A stretch of DNA of 64,000 nt, taken from the NCBI RefSeq assembly GCF_039544005.1, contig NZ_BAABKV010000001.1, positions 2,790,001-2,854,000 on the forward strand. The letters run 5' to 3'. How positions within the stretch are numbered: position 1 is the first letter of the stretch; the number at the start of each line of letters is the position of its first letter. Of this stretch, positions 7,757 to 16,911 are shown one piece after another. The notes below the pieces were generated by a model, which was not told the origin of the DNA, did not search any database, and saw only the letters and a list, made by a program, of their open reading frames with translations. The DNA is from Kitasatospora paranensis (GTDB lineage Bacteria; Actinomycetota; Actinomycetes; Streptomycetales; Streptomycetaceae). The position numbers were made by a program, and so were the translations under genes.

Positions 7757-8771
7757 GTGACCACCACCACGCCCTGGACGTCCACCGCGGCGGCCGCCCT
7801 GGCCGACGCGCTGGAGACCGCCGTCCACCACCGCGGCGTACCGGGCGGGGTGCTCCTCCTCGGGGACTGCGCCGGCACCGGCCGCCTCGTCCACGCCCGC
7901 GGCACCGTCGCACCGGAATGCGGCCCCGCCGCACCCGACGAGCACACCCGCTACGACCTCGCCTCACTCACGAAGATCACTTCCACCTGGGCGCTCACCG
8001 GCCGCGCCCTCACCGACGGCCTGCTCGGCCTCGACGAGCCGATCGCCGCGCGCTTCCCGGAACTCCCCTGCCCGGAGGCGGACTGACCGTACGGCAGTTG
8101 CTCACCCACAGCTCGGGACTCGAACCCGTCACCCGGCTGGACCGCTACCTGCTCACCGACCGGCCGCTGGCCGAACTGCTCTGCGCCGCCCCCTGGTGTC
8201 CCCTCCAGGTCGCGAACACCGTTACATCGACCGGGGATTCGTGCTGCTCGGCCTACTTCTCGCCGCCGCACACCGGCGTCGCCTGGAGGTGCTCGCGGAC
8301 GACTACTGGGCCGAAGTCGGCATGAACGAGACCGAGTTCGGCCCGCTCCGGCGCTCACCGCAGGTCGCACCGACGGAGCAGCGGCTGCGCGGTGCCCCGC
8401 GCACCTGGGGCGTGCCGCACGACCCCAATGCGGCCCTGCTGGGCGGGGTGGCCGGCCATGCCGGGGTGTTCTCGACCGCCGCCGACCTGGCGACCTTCGC
8501 CGAACACCTGCTGGCCGGGGACCGGTGGCTCGCCGAGAGCCTGCGCCCGCAGATCGCCATCGAGGCCGGCCGCAGCCGGGGTCTCTGCTGGATCGTCACC
8601 GACGCCGGGGTGGCGTACCACCACGGCTACACCGGCACCAGCCTGTACCTCGCCCCCGCCACCGGCCGCTACCTGGCACTGCTCACCAACGCGGTCTACC
8701 ACGGCTTCAGCGCCAGCCGGCTGACCCCGCTCCGCGACCTCGCCCTCGCCCTGCTGGAGCAGGACGGCTGA
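7757..8771 (+). CDS. Serine hydrolase (class C beta-lactamase fold), two one-base frameshifts
   Basis: Repaired length 338 residues. The first piece has the SxxK nucleophile motif (DLASLTKITSTWALTG). One C added to 8065-8068 joins it to LPGGGLTVRQLLTHSSGLE, and one C added to 8189-8193 joins that to LVSPPGREHRYIDRGFVLLG. The last piece has GMNETEFGPL, HAGVFSTAADLATFAEHLLA and the HxG-type third motif (YHHGYTGTSLYL). Such proteins hydrolyse esters, amides or peptidoglycan-related substrates; true beta-lactamase activity is less likely. No signal peptide is visible, so it is probably cytoplasmic. It starts at an ATG-less GTG (GTGACCACC) 3 bases after the motif GGGACGTACC. Confidence 0.8.
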
Positions 8772-12869: not shown

Positions 12870-14066
12870 GTGGGGTGGCAGGACGTGGCGCGTGAGTTGG
12901 CGGCGTTCCGCCGCATGGAACGTCACCTGAGCGGCAGCGCGGACCGGGCCGATTTCCTGGTCGACCTCTCCAACATCGTCCGCGAGACCGGACTCGGCGG
13001 CGGCGCGCCGAGGGCGCTCGAACGGCTGCGGCTCGTCCTCGCCGCGCTGCGCGCATCCACCGGCGACCCGGAGGTCACCGTCCACGCCATCGCCGACAAC
13101 AGCCTGCTGGACCCGCGGTACGACCAGGACTTCTCCGACCCCGCGGAGGCGGAGCTGCTGCGCAGCTGGCGCGGCAGCGGGCTGATCGCCGCCATCGGCA
13201 AGGCGGACCCGGACCTGCTCGACCACGCGAAGGTCCTCGGCACCCCGGTCATCAGCAGCGACTTCTTCAAGGGCCACCGCGGGGAGCATCCGTGGATCCA
13301 GGGCGACCGGGACCACTTCCTCAAACCCGAACGCCCCACCCCGGACGGTCCGGTCCGGCTCGTCCGCCGCGACATGCGGGTCTTCGCCGACCGGGAGGTC
13401 TCACGGGAGGGCGAGCGCGACGACCTCAAGGCCCGCAACCTGGTGGACTTCCACGGACGGCCCCGCGCGGACGTCCTCGAACGCTCCTGGCGCTGCCCGC
13501 GGACACCGTGCAACCCCAGCCCCGCGATCCGTGGCGGCCGGGTGGTCTGCCGCGCCCACGGCACCCTGCTCGCCGAGGGCGGACCGCGCCGGCCGCGGGT
13601 CCAGCTCAAGATCCTGGTTGACGGCGTGTGCCGGGCCTGGGAGAACCTGGCCGAGGACGGGAGCCGGGAGTTCGCCCTCGGCCGCGGCCACCTCGCACGG
13701 ATCGACAGCCGGCACCTCGCCGAGGACCGCCGGCTGCGGATCAGCCGGCAGCACCTGCTGATCGTCGCCCACCGCGGCACCCTCAAGATCCTGGACACCA
13801 GCACGGCGCTCAGCCAGATCCGCACCCTGCGGCCCGGCGGTGTCCCCACCCCGTGGCAACGGCTCCGGCACAGCGACGAGGAGTCCGCGGGCACGCCCCG
13901 CGAGCGGCTGTTCGGACCGTTCGGCCCCGACGACGAGATCGAACTCGTCCCGGGCGTCGTACTGCGCCGCAGCGGCCAGCGCTGGCCGGGGGAACGGCCC
14001 GGGGGCGTCCGCGCCAAACCACCCCGACGGCCGCCGGACGGCGACGAGTTGACGCGGATCGGCTGA
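12870..14066 (+). CDS. Regnase-like NYN ribonuclease fused to an FHA domain
   Basis: 398 residues from GTG 12870. Residues about 28-160 fit the NYN/Zc3h12a (Regnase) RNase fold: FLVDLSNIVRETGL, VTVHAIADNSLLDPRYDQDF, AIGKADPDLLDHAKVLGTPV and ISSDFFKGHRGEHPWIQG, with acids at the expected strand ends. A central Cys/His cluster (WRCPRTPCNPS...VVCRAHG) may bind zinc. Residues about 265-340 look like an FHA domain: EFALGRGHLARIDSR, RLRISRQHLLIV, LKILDTSTALS, which binds phosphothreonine. No signal or membrane segment. The kinase gene follows after 64 bases in the same direction. Inference: an RNase controlled by kinase-dependent phosphopeptide binding. The domain calls are from motif reading only. 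Confidence 0.7.
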   Translation: MGWQDVARELAAFRRMERHLSGSADRADFLVDLSNIVRETGLGGGAPRALERLRLVLAALRASTGDPEVTVHAIADNSLLDPRYDQDFSDPAEAELLRSWRGSGLIAAIGKADPDLLDHAKVLGTPVISSDFFKGHRGEHPWIQGDRDHFLKPERPTPDGPVRLVRRDMRVFADREVSREGERDDLKARNLVDFHGRPRADVLERSWRCPRTPCNPSPAIRGGRVVCRAHGTLLAEGGPRRPRVQLKILVDGVCRAWENLAEDGSREFALGRGHLARIDSRHLAEDRRLRISRQHLLIVAHRGTLKILDTSTALSQIRTLRPGGVPTPWQRLRHSDEESAGTPRERLFGPFGPDDEIELVPGVVLRRSGQRWPGERPGGVRAKPPRRPPDGDELTRIG

Positions 14067-14130
14067 CCCGGGCGGACTTCCGCCGACGGGGGCGGGCACC
14101 ACGACGGGTGCGGACACGGAAGGGGGTCAG

Positions 14131-16911
14131 GTGGAGCCGCTGCGGGAGGACGACCCCGAACTCATCGGCCCCTACCGGCTGTTCGCCCTGCTGGGCCGGG
14201 GCGGCTGGGGGAACGTCTACTTCGCCCGACCCGAGTACGGCCGTGCGGTGGCACTCAAGACGATCCGGCCCGACCGCCTGGAGGAGGACCCGGAGCGGTT
14301 CCGCAGCCGGTTCGCCCGGGAGGTCGAGGCGGCCAGGGTGGTCGGCTCCGCCTGCACCGCGGAGGTCGTCGACGCCGACACCCGGGCCGCCGAACCCTGG
14401 TTCGCCGCCCGCTACATCCCCGGGGTGGACCTGGCCACGGCGCTCGACCTGCACGGCGGTCCGCTGCCGCGGAGGACCTGGCGGGTGCTGGCCGCCGGGC
14501 TGGTCGACGCACTGCGCAGCATCCACGCCGCCGGGCTGGTGCACCGCGACCTGAAGCTCGCCAACATCCTGCTCGCCGCCACCGGCCCGGCCGTGATCGA
14601 CTTCGGCATCGCCCGGCAGCTCTCGCCGGACGCCGGCACCACCCTGACCGCCACCGGGTTCGCACCGCGGACCCTCACCTTCGCCTCGCCCGAGCAGCTC
14701 CGCGACGAGCGGGTCGGACCGGCCGGGGACGTCTTCGCGCTGGGCCTCGTCCTCGCGTACGCGGCCCTCGCCCGCCACCCCTTCGGCCCGGGCTCGGCGA
14801 CCCAGATCGGCGTCGGCATCCTCCAGGGCCGCCCCCGGCTCGACGGGCTGCCGCCCGACATCGCCAAGGTCGTCCGCGCCTGCCTGGAGCCGCAGACCCG
14901 GAACCGTCCCGGCCTCGACGAGCTCTCCGCGCTGCTGCCCGCCGACGGGTCGCCGAAGGGGCACGAGTGGCTGTCCCCGGAGCTGCGGGGCGCCGTCGAC
15001 GAGCGCGCCGGGACGGCCCTCGACCTCGCCGAACCCATCCGGCCCCGCCGGGGCGCGCCCGCCCGCCCCGCGCCCGCCCGGGTACCGACGACCGGGCCGC
15101 CGGCGGACCGCCGGTCCGACCGCACCAGCGCCTCGCCCGCCCCGGCCCGGGAGGGGGCGACCACCCTGCCGCCGGTCGCAGCGCCACCCCGGGCCGTGCC
15201 CGGGGCAGCGCCACCGACGGCGGACCGCCCGGCCCCGGCCAGGCCGGCCGCGGCCAAGCCGACCGGGCCCGGTGCGAAGTTCCGGGCGGAGGCCGATGCC
15301 GGGGACTCGGAGGCCATGCGACGGCTCGCGGCCGCCCACCAGCAGGCGGGCGACCGTCCGTCGGCCCTGCACTGGTACCTGCGCTCTGCCGAGGCCGGCA
15401 ACGCCACCGGTGCGCGCGAGGCCGCTCATCTGATCGAGAAGCACTTCCCGGAGCAGCAGCGCCAGGTGCCGGCACTGTACCGGCGGGCCGCCGAGGCCGG
15501 GGACCTGCATGCCGCGATGCGGCTCGGCGAACTGCTGGAACAGGAACCCGGCGGGCTGGAGGAGGCCCTGCCGTGGTTCGAGCGGGCGGCCGTCCACAAC
15601 TACGGGAAGTCCCGGGCGGCGGTACTGCGGGTCCGGTCCGCGGTGTCGCTGGCCGCGGTGCCCGCCGCCGAGCGCGCCGTACTGCGCGAGCACCGGGCCG
15701 CCGCCCTGGAGGGACAGATCGACGCCATCCTGGCGCTGGGGAACTGGTACCAGAAGGAGAAGCGCCCCCAGGACGCCCTGCTCTGGTACTGGCGGGCCGC
15801 GGAGGCGGGCCACCCGCACAGCATGCTGCTCACCGGCCAGCTCCTGGCCAAGGACCCGCAGCGGCAGGCCGAGGCGCTGGACTGGTACCACCGGTCGGCG
15901 GCGGCCGGGAACACCGAGGCCCTGTACTGGCTCGGGCAGCGCCTGCGCGCGGAGGGCCGCCGGCCTGAGGCGCTCGCCCGCCTCCGCCAGGCCGCCGAGA
16001 AGGACCACGCCCCGTCCGCGTTCGCCGTGGCCGAACTCGTGGAGCAGAACGGGCAGGAGGACCGCGCCCGGGAGTGGTACGAGCGGGCCGCCGCCAAGGG
16101 ACACCCCGGGGCGGCGCAGGAGGCCGAACGGATCCGCGCCGCCCTCGCGTGGAGGGCAACCGGTCCGAAGGCGACGAAGACCGCCACGCCCAAGCCCGCG
16201 GCCGCCCCGGCCGCTGCCAAGCCCGCGACCCCGAAGCCCGCGACCCCGAAGCCCGCGACCTCGAAATCCGCCGCCAAGAAGGCGAAGCGCCCCGTCGCGG
16301 ACCTGGTGGCCGCCGCCCGCACCGAGGCAAGGGCGCACGAGCAGGCCGGCCGGCTGGAGGACGCCGTGCGCTGCTACACCCAGGCCGAGCAGCTGTCCGA
16401 CCAGGCCTCGAAGTGGGACGTCGCCCGGTTGTGCCTGCGGCTCCGCGACCGGGCGTCCGACACCGAGGAGCAGCGCCGGCTCAGGAAGCGGGCGCTGCGG
16501 CGCTACCGGGAACTCGCCGCTACCGGCGACGTCCGGGCCATGCAGGCCCTGGTCGAGCACGGCGCCCACGACGCCAACCACTGGCAGGTCCAGGCGGCCG
16601 AGGCGGGGAGTACCAAGGCCATGCGGGCGGTGGCCAGGGTGCGGCTGGACAGGGGCGGTGAGGACAACGTCCGGGCCGCCCTGGTCTGGCTGCACCGGGC
16701 CGGGCAGGCGGGCAGTGCGGCGGCCGCGATGGACGGCGCAAGGATCCACGAACAGCGCGGCGCCCACCGGGACGCCCTCGACTGGTACCGCTGGGCCGTG
16801 GCCAACGGCGACAAGAGCGCCGCCCAGCACGTCACCCGCCTGGAAACGGCCCACCCCGGCGTCGCCCTCTGGCAGCGCGTCTCCGACCGCCTGCGCCGCA
16901 CCTGGGGTTGA
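14131..16911 (+). CDS. Ser/Thr protein kinase with Sel1/TPR-type repeats
   Basis: 926 residues, GTG start after an AGGGGG-type ribosome binding site. The N-terminal kinase domain (about residues 10-270) has the glycine loop LLGRGGWGNVYFA, the ATP lysine at 43 (VALKTI), HRDLKLAN at 138 and DFGIAR at 157, so it should be active. A Pro/Ala-rich linker follows (about 300-375). The rest holds Sel1-like repeats, each close to AxxWYxRAAEAGhxxAxxxLG, e.g. ALHWYLRSAEAGNATGAREA and ALLWYWRAAEAGHPHSMLL. A Lys/Pro/Ala repeat (KPATPKPATPKPATSK) splits the repeats in two. There is no transmembrane segment, unlike PknB-type kinases. The partner is the NYN-FHA gene upstream; the FHA domain may read its phosphorylation. 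Confidence 0.88.
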   Translation: MEPLREDDPELIGPYRLFALLGRGGWGNVYFARPEYGRAVALKTIRPDRLEEDPERFRSRFAREVEAARVVGSACTAEVVDADTRAAEPWFAARYIPGVDLATALDLHGGPLPRRTWRVLAAGLVDALRSIHAAGLVHRDLKLANILLAATGPAVIDFGIARQLSPDAGTTLTATGFAPRTLTFASPEQLRDERVGPAGDVFALGLVLAYAALARHPFGPGSATQIGVGILQGRPRLDGLPPDIAKVVRACLEPQTRNRPGLDELSALLPADGSPKGHEWLSPELRGAVDERAGTALDLAEPIRPRRGAPARPAPARVPTTGPPADRRSDRTSASPAPAREGATTLPPVAAPPRAVPGAAPPTADRPAPARPAAAKPTGPGAKFRAEADAGDSEAMRRLAAAHQQAGDRPSALHWYLRSAEAGNATGAREAAHLIEKHFPEQQRQVPALYRRAAEAGDLHAAMRLGELLEQEPGGLEEALPWFERAAVHNYGKSRAAVLRVRSAVSLAAVPAAERAVLREHRAAALEGQIDAILALGNWYQKEKRPQDALLWYWRAAEAGHPHSMLLTGQLLAKDPQRQAEALDWYHRSAAAGNTEALYWLGQRLRAEGRRPEALARLRQAAEKDHAPSAFAVAELVEQNGQEDRAREWYERAAAKGHPGAAQEAERIRAALAWRATGPKATKTATPKPAAAPAAAKPATPKPATPKPATSKSAAKKAKRPVADLVAAARTEARAHEQAGRLEDAVRCYTQAEQLSDQASKWDVARLCLRLRDRASDTEEQRRLRKRALRRYRELAATGDVRAMQALVEHGAHDANHWQVQAAEAGSTKAMRAVARVRLDRGGEDNVRAALVWLHRAGQAGSAAAAMDGARIHEQRGAHRDALDWYRWAVANGDKSAAQHVTRLETAHPGVALWQRVSDRLRRTWG

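What the first reader, a model, noticed from the sequence alone, without database searches (positions are those of the whole stretch)
12870..16911. Two-gene module: Regnase-like RNase with FHA domain plus a soluble Ser/Thr kinase with Sel1 repeats
The first gene combines a NYN/Zc3h12a-type RNase, a Cys/His cluster and an FHA phosphothreonine reader. The second encodes an apparently active kinase (HRDLK, DFG) that lacks a membrane helix and sensor PASTA domains and instead has many helical repeats, likely for protein recognition. A kinase able to phosphorylate, an FHA to read it, and a nuclease to act on RNA make a compact switch that could control RNA decay, stress or phage response. I know of no described system with this set.
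Basis: partly seen in the sequence, partly recalled or inferred. Interest (0 to 1): 0.76.

Follow-up and report, generated by a model that had tools for sequence, protein, structure and literature searches.

The report
Kinase-switched Regnase-like RNase gene pair
Two neighbouring genes in a Kitasatospora-type soil bacterium encode an RNA-cutting enzyme that carries a phosphate-reading domain and, next to it, a protein kinase; relatives of the RNA cutter often sit beside a kinase, and share a likely phosphorylation site in a loose tail, which suggests a phosphorylation switch on RNA cutting that has not yet been tested.

Summary
Window 12870-14066 encodes a Regnase/MCPIP1-like PIN(NYN) domain, a Cys3-His cluster and an FHA domain; 14131-16911 encodes a soluble, active-looking Ser/Thr kinase with Sel1/TPR-type repeats. 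AlphaFold plus Foldseek/VIA supports both folds of the first protein. In 71 non-redundant relatives found by RNase homology alone, three catalytic Asp and three Cys are invariant, and 49 of 71 have a kinase gene within 600 nt, against 14 of 765 other genes in the same loci. Orientation differs between clades, and the partner kinases come from several lineages with different C-terminal halves. New here: a Thr in the disordered C-terminal tail, 18-23 residues past the FHA, in 57 of 57 members of the four main clades (13 distant rows not counted), which suggests a GarA/DgcB-like phospho-switch. PIN+Zn and PIN+FHA combinations are already described as effectors of vWA-MoxR-VMAP conflict systems (PMC7159879); the stand-alone kinase pairing was not found in my literature searches. 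No defence-island enrichment was seen. Verdict: a new variant of a known kind; function and direction of the switch unproven.

The parts
12870..14066 (+). RNase-FHA gene, 398 aa, GTG start (clade-B relatives mostly start near the position of Met16)
12942..13373 (+). Regnase/MCPIP1-like PIN (NYN) domain, residues 25-168; conserved acids D32, D76, D113, D131
   Evidence: fold; conservation
13488..13562 (+). Cys/His cluster, residues 207-231 (C209-x4-C214 ... C227-x2-H230), likely zinc ribbon
   Evidence: three Cys 71 of 71; position 230 His 63, Cys 8
13593..13982 (+). FHA domain, residues 242-371; GR (271-272) and SRxH (292-295) kept, the usual NG motif lost in this clade
13986..14063 (+). disordered C-terminal tail, residues 373-398
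   Evidence: 375-398 pLDDT < 50
14052..14054 (+). Thr395 codon: conserved tail threonine, candidate phospho-acceptor
14131..16911 (+). Ser/Thr kinase gene, 926 aa, no membrane helix seen
14176..14925 (+). kinase domain (K43, HRD138-140, DFG157-159)
15283..16161 (+). first Sel1/TPR-like helical solenoid, residues 385-677
16294..16905 (+). second Sel1/TPR-like helical solenoid, residues 722-925

Best explanation
The pair is a two-component phospho-switch on an RNase. Shown by sequence or fold: a conserved Regnase-like PIN active site, a metal-type Cys/His cluster, an FHA that keeps its phosphate-contacting Arg and Ser, a disordered tail with a fixed Thr, and an active-type kinase whose variable C-terminal half (Sel1/TPR repeats here; a hydrophobic helix plus further domain, a short TPR-like part, or WD40-like or PQQ-like repeats in relatives, the last three by eye) is the probable sensor. 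Inferred: on a signal read by the repeats the kinase autophosphorylates, the FHA docks the RNase on the kinase, the kinase phosphorylates Thr395 in the RNase tail, and the phospho-tail binds an FHA in cis or in trans (as in GarA and DgcB), changing the assembly and thus the activity of the PIN RNase. I think activation (release of RNA cleavage under stress or attack) more likely than silencing, but the direction is a guess. The output would be regulated RNA decay or growth arrest.
For: Kinase neighbour in 49 of 71 non-redundant relatives against 14 of 765 other genes of the same loci (partner kinases themselves not counted in the background). Arrangements differ: same strand downstream (window clade A 8 of 8; G18 clade 18 of 18; L167; L091), divergent with 135-274 nt between the matched parts (17 rows of clade B), same strand upstream (L054, L056, L059), convergent (L024). 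Several kinase lineages stand next to the same RNase family: A and B sisters (0.856), G18 with L167 elsewhere in the tree (0.921), L091 and L024 elsewhere; L091's RNase groups with L088, but its kinase is of another lineage and lies on the other side. Catalytic and FHA residues conserved. Tail Thr in 57 of 57 tails of the four main clades at offset 18-23; T[RMSLTV][RLMVIFY] in 56 of 70 tails, 11.9 expected and at most 21 in 2000 shuffles (pattern written after seeing the tails). L096, which lost SRxH, has no tail Thr and no adjacent kinase. Precedent: DgcB's FHA takes a phosphorylated peptide from its own N-terminal region as activating ligand (PMC6733907, abstract seen); DgcB FHA is also among the structure matches.
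Against: No biochemistry. 22 of 71 relatives have no kinase within 600 nt; 21 of these 22 keep GR and SRxH and 18 of 22 a tail Thr motif (my reading), so a kinase in trans would be needed. Six of the 22 belong to the vWA-cluster clade; in L058 the kinase-like gene scores just below the PF00069 cut-off (30.2, cut-off 31.7). The window's own clade has lost the NG motif of FHA, and the three-letter tail motif is not above chance in it (2 of 8, 1.35 expected). By BLAST score the window kinase is nearer to several other kinases of relatives (230.7 bits in G007, 226.4 in G025) than to the clade-B partners of G025 and G033 (184.7, 180.5), so common origin of the A and B pairs is unsure. The tail Thr could be a substrate site not read by the FHA. 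Rows are related, so counts are not independent events.
Confidence: 0.6

Rival explanations
1. FHA is only a docking site for the autophosphorylated kinase (or for a third phosphoprotein), so that the kinase places the RNase at a target; the tail Thr is not its ligand.
For: SRxH is kept in 70 and GR in 71 of 71; a solved FhaA FHA complex with the intracellular domain of Rv3910 (3oun, title; that Rv3910 is a pseudokinase, and that GarA docks on PknB, is recalled).
Against: Does not explain why a Thr (57 of 57) in an otherwise variable disordered tail lies at nearly constant distance from the FHA across clades that pair with different kinases.
Confidence: 0.25
2. An anti-phage (abortive infection) effector with the kinase as sensor.
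For: The same RNase-FHA module is fused at the end of a large protein beside VMAP and MoxR genes (6 loci: L025, L026, L174, L175, L176, L180; Pfam for L025, BLAST for the others) and recurs in clusters with vWA, SpoIIE-type phosphatase, kinase-like and second Zc3h12a RNase genes (L058 measured, L057, L093, L094, L098 by likeness). Patchy occurrence: 20 of 70 genomes of the genus, 21 of 391 in the order, own genome included.
Against: No PADLOC enrichment in 71 flanking proteins; the ten window neighbours scanned are metabolic, transport, regulator or RNase II-type genes; in the G18 clade the pair may be stably inherited (18 of 18 same arrangement).
Confidence: 0.3
3. A housekeeping RNA-decay regulator in stress or development, not a conflict system.
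For: One arrangement in all 18 G18 rows; ordinary metabolic surroundings.
Against: Patchy presence, several arrangements, kinase replacement.
Confidence: 0.3
4. Chance neighbours: an RNase gene that happens to lie by one of the genome's many kinases.
For: 29 of 32 kinase matches over the cut-off in the 8.4 Mb genome, some of them pieces of one gene.
Against: 49 of 71 against 14 of 765; adjacency kept through changed orientation.
Confidence: 0.02

Closest known systems
PIN + Zn-binding (+ FHA) effectors of vWA-MoxR-VMAP ternary conflict systems (Kaur et al. 2020, PMC7159879)
   Same: Same three kinds of domain; six fused homologues found here beside VMAP and MoxR genes.
   Different: No vWA, MoxR or VMAP match among ten window neighbours, and a dedicated active-type kinase; the six fused copies have lost the FHA GR and SRxH and an Asp at 113 or 131 (by reading).
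Regnase-1/MCPIP1 and ZC3H12 PIN RNases
   Same: PIN fold and four acidic positions.
   Different: No CCCH finger of the Regnase spacing (recalled); an FHA and tail instead; bacterial.
GarA/OdhI and DgcB FHA switches
   Same: FHA plus a conserved Thr in a disordered extension, with a Ser/Thr kinase.
   Different: C-terminal, not N-terminal, tail; output is an RNase; tail binding not shown.
AfsK-type actinobacterial kinases
   Same: Best NCBIfam match of the kinase is AfsK, NF053615.
   Different: Far below the AfsK cut-off (232.9, cut-off 1300); repeats instead of the AfsK C-terminal half.
kinase + PP2C + vWA theme of GAP1-N2 systems (PMC7159879 section 29) and the TerY-P triad (recalled)
   Same: L058 joins vWA, SpoIIE-type phosphatase and kinase-like genes to RNase-FHA genes.
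   Different: The window has only the two genes.

Membership tests
Regnase-like PIN/NYN RNase | PIN fold of the Regnase/ZC3H12 kind | tested here: met
   (predicted model)
Regnase-like PIN/NYN RNase | four acidic active-site positions | tested here: met
   D76, D113, D131 71 of 71; position 32 D or E 71 of 71 (matching to the Regnase acids is by motif, recalled)
Regnase-like PIN/NYN RNase | score above the PF11977 cut-off for the window protein | tested here: not met
   no PF11977 hit; the sister RNase L058:4884-5891 passes. Hence 'Regnase-like fold', not filed as a PF11977 member
Regnase-like PIN/NYN RNase | CCCH zinc finger | tested here: not met
   spacing C-x4-C ... C-x2-H/C; CCCH spacing recalled
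FHA phosphothreonine reader | FHA fold, GR and SRxH | tested here: met
FHA phosphothreonine reader | NG motif | tested here: not met
   lost in the window clade; YG, NG or other in the rest
Hanks-type Ser/Thr kinase | Lys, HRD, DFG and PF00069 match | tested here: met
PASTA receptor kinase | membrane helix and PASTA domains | tested here: not met
AfsK equivalog | NF053615 cut-off 1300 bits | tested here: not met
   232.9 bits
vWA-MoxR-VMAP ternary system | vWA, MoxR and VMAP genes in the locus | tested here: not met
   ten window neighbours; MoxR-like AAA and VMAP found in L025
GarA/DgcB-type phospho-switch | conserved Thr in a disordered extension next to an FHA | tested here: met
GarA/DgcB-type phospho-switch | phosphorylation of that Thr and binding to the FHA | not testable with these tools
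   needs biochemistry
anti-phage defence system | location among defence genes | tested here: not met
   (71 of 98 listed flanking proteins scanned)

The most novel reading that the evidence does not exclude
A stand-alone class of phospho-switched Regnase-like RNases in actinobacteria: one effector (PIN-Zn-FHA with a self-read phospho-Thr tail) that has taken several different kinases as plug-in sensors, the same effector also being wired into VMAP and vWA-kinase-phosphatase conflict systems. It would be a bacterial counterpart of kinase-controlled Regnase-1.
Probability: 0.45. Interest if true: 0.78.

Novelty: new variant of a known kind. Interest (0 to 1): 0.62.

Why it matters
If true, it links bacterial Hanks-type kinases directly to RNA cleavage through a single two-gene module, gives an exact residue (Thr395) and domain (FHA) to mutate, and offers a clean case of one effector combined with many sensor kinases. 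It would also give the RNase-FHA modules of the large VMAP-type conflict systems a testable mechanism.

Tried and rejected
Chance neighbourhood: rejected. Defence-island location: tested, not found. RNA structure between the genes: nothing special (z 0.60). One conserved insertion place: paaK neighbours the RNase gene in 4 of the 30 paaK loci fetched (G000, G848, G851, G015); the other paaK loci that I read carry other genes there; no empty site was worked out. Orphan partner kinase in genomes whose RNase has no kinase neighbour: inconclusive, as all 8 genomes searched hold many similar kinases; the same call speaks against a close tie of the A and B partner kinases. Viral contigs, phage and plasmid collections were not searched. 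Sequence search of the PDB gave nothing below E 0.1. The kinase domain was poorly modelled (6 rows, pLDDT about 22-58); only the repeats are confident. The first kinase tree lacked near paralogues of other genomes; remade with them. Tail test: the pattern, the offset range and the grouping into four main clades plus 13 distant rows were chosen after seeing the tails, so the shuffle figures overstate; control motifs with P or G in place of T were also enriched (43 and 26 of 70, 17.4 and 15.2 expected), probably because they overlap PTR/PTM. Rows dropped before the count of 71: L051 and L086 (one record; in-frame TGA; kinase adjacent), L061 (partial match; kinase adjacent), L163 (only the C-terminal part in frame; kinase adjacent), L159 (in-frame TGA; weak kinase match), L097 (partial; none seen), and 19 of 90 rows as near-copies at 95%. 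Six fused and five 'second RNase' copies are not in the 71. L092 was left out of tail counts (masked end). The kinase HMM was made from kinases of these loci, so distant kinases can be missed; the background count used the same HMM.
Full report
Observation. The kinase is clear from Pfam. The RNase-FHA protein has no match above a cut-off in Pfam and none at E up to 1 in NCBIfam, PADLOC or PHROGs, so I tested it by structure and by relatives. The AlphaFold model on 26 rows (alignment A3) has mean pLDDT 84.8, with residues 375-398 disordered. Foldseek against the PDB puts MCPIP1/Regnase PIN first (E 2.4e-5), with FHA domains from rank 10 (APLF 1.3e-4; later DgcB, MDC1, FhaA); VIA-align gives Z 12.4, 2.1 A over 99 residues for APLF FHA and Z 10.4-11.4 over 129-137 residues for ZC3H12C, MCPIP1 and PRORP PIN domains. 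Paralogues pass the Pfam cut-offs for RNase_Zc3h12a and FHA.

Relatives. Searching by the RNase protein found it in 13 of 61 relatives, 21 of 391 genomes of the order, 20 of 70 of the genus, 59 of 394 of the family with a clade-B query, weak matches included, and 5 of 396 of the phylum with an alignment; each count includes the window's own genome. A scan of GTDB species genomes gave 36 named loci: Streptomyces, Kitasatospora, Frankia, Parafrankia, Microbispora, Acrocarpospora.

Conservation. 90 rows reduce to 71 at 95% identity. D76, D113, D131, C209, C214, C227, G271, R272 and S311 are 71 of 71; D32 is Asp 59, Glu 12; position 230 is His 63, Cys 8, an exchange expected of a zinc ligand; S292, R293 and H295 are 70 of 71. 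The exception, L096, also has no tail Thr and no kinase neighbour.

Kinase neighbour. 49 of 71 have a kinase within 600 nt of the matched parts: window clade A 8 of 8, clade G18 18 of 18, clade B 21 of 26, vWA-cluster clade 0 of 6, remaining distant rows 2 of 13 (my clade labels; recounted). Background: 14 of 765 other genes of the same loci have a non-partner kinase within 600 nt. The binomial value printed there treats rows as independent, which they are not; the stronger argument is the repeated pairing. Clade A and G18 have the kinase downstream on the same strand; in clade B 17 rows are divergent, 3 upstream on the same strand, 1 downstream; L024 is convergent. On the kinase tree with 20 other kinases of the window's genome and 20 loci of near paralogues from relatives, A and B are each supported (1.0) and sisters (0.856), G18 and L167 lie elsewhere (0.921), and L091 and L024 elsewhere again (several deep forks are weak). 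Against the A-B tie, the window kinase scores higher against other kinases of the same relatives than against their clade-B partner kinases. The halves after the kinase domain differ: repeats and no hydrophobic helix in A; a 19-residue mean over 1.9 in 17 of 20 clade-B kinases (L046 1.89, L047 1.84, L092 cut short); a short helical TPR-like part in G18 and L167; WD40-like repeats in L091; PQQ-like repeats in L024 (the TPR, WD40 and PQQ names are my reading of the sequence). All 49 partner kinases keep HRD.K..N and DFG.

RNase tree. On the tree of 70 RNase proteins the A and G18 groups are each one side of a branch (SH-aLRT 100 and 99), and the neighbour labels need 13 changes, against a shuffled mean of 43.1 (the program warns of long branches among the distant rows).

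Tail threonine. After the FHA each protein has a poorly conserved tail. In the four main clades (57 tails) a Thr lies 18-23 residues past the column of P373 in 57 of 57; the Thr frequency nearer the FHA is 0.077, and Ser occurs anywhere in that interval in 11. T[RMSLTV][RLMVIFY] occurs in 56 of 70 tails, mean 11.9 and maximum 21 over 2000 shuffles; by clade 22 of 25 B, 18 of 18 G18, 6 of 6 vWA-cluster, 8 of 13 distant, each never reached in 2000 shuffles, but only 2 of 8 in clade A, which is chance (1.35 expected). The two-letter form T[RMSLTV] is 8 of 8 in clade A (P 0.002), but not significant in the vWA-cluster (P 0.067) and distant rows (P 0.26). The patterns and the interval were set after seeing the tails. 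G18 tails run on for 11-46 residues from the Thr to the end, so its place is tied to the FHA, not to the end of the protein. FHA domains read phosphothreonine (general knowledge). Together with DgcB, whose FHA takes a phosphorylated peptide of its own N-terminal region (PMC6733907, abstract), and GarA, whose N-terminal ETTS motif is phosphorylated and whose phosphothreonine is bound by its own FHA (PMC5448819, passages), this is the basis of my mechanism.

Wider family. The same module ends a protein called at 1089-1354 aa beside VMAP and MoxR genes in six loci (L025, L026, L174, L175, L176, L180; Pfam in L025; BLAST in the others). In all six the FHA GR and SRxH are gone and position 113 or 131 is not Asp (by reading). 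In L058 it stands beside genes for a coiled-coil-like protein, a SpoIIE-type phosphatase, a vWA protein, a second RNase that passes PF11977 and shows FHA-like motifs, and a kinase-like protein just below the PF00069 cut-off; L057, L093, L094 and L098 look alike by length and sequence, some cut by contig ends. The second RNase ends at its FHA without a tail. Kaur et al. 2020 (PMC7159879; sections 11 and 29 and passages seen) describe PIN RNase with a C-terminal Zn-binding domain, and PIN combined with FHA, among the effectors of these systems. So the domain set is not new; the stand-alone pairing with exchangeable kinases and the tail Thr were not found by my searches (open-access papers only, the nearest papers seen in part).

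Defence. I listed 98 flanking proteins of 20 loci and scanned 71 of them, from 17 loci. Matches at 1e-10 fell on 8 PADLOC models, none on more than 2 proteins, at most 5 proteins in all; two were traced, a DinG-like protein in L060 and a protein in L056 that matches mad3 and mad8, three were not. The ten window neighbours scanned are beta-lactamase-like (two pieces), lipase, PucR-type regulator, AMP-binding ligase, FG-GAP-like, MFS, RNase II, DUF3995 and YaaA. So no island.

Conclusion. The pair is real, conserved and very probably functional as a pair. The most likely mechanism is kinase control of a Regnase-like RNase through FHA and tail Thr; biological purpose (phage, stress, development) and sign of control are open.

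Noticed in passing
L058:294-11220 (also L057, L093, L094, L098): Cluster of RNase-FHA, coiled-coil-like protein, SpoIIE-type phosphatase, vWA protein, second Zc3h12a RNase and kinase-like gene; looks like an expanded vWA-kinase-phosphatase conflict system.
   Followed up: partly
L025:2843-9698 and L026, L174, L175, L176, L180: RNase-FHA module fused to a large protein beside VMAP and MoxR genes, with FHA residues and a catalytic Asp lost.
   Followed up: partly
L062:1778-10045: RNase-FHA next to two proteins without Pfam match, a vWA protein and a kinase-like protein below the PF00069 cut-off.
   Followed up: partly
L021:8971-14604, L022:8625-14344: RNase-FHA gene directly before two genes that look like trehalose synthesis (TreY/TreZ by eye).
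   Followed up: no
L047:11335-12333, L087: A second kinase gene (about 320 aa) about 1.5 kb downstream of the RNase-FHA gene.
   Followed up: no
window 7757-8771: Two ORFs match the first and second parts of the beta-lactamase profile; may be one interrupted gene.
   Followed up: no
L094:8132-9913: An ORF that looks like a reverse transcriptase (group II intron type by eye) near the RNase-FHA gene.
   Followed up: no
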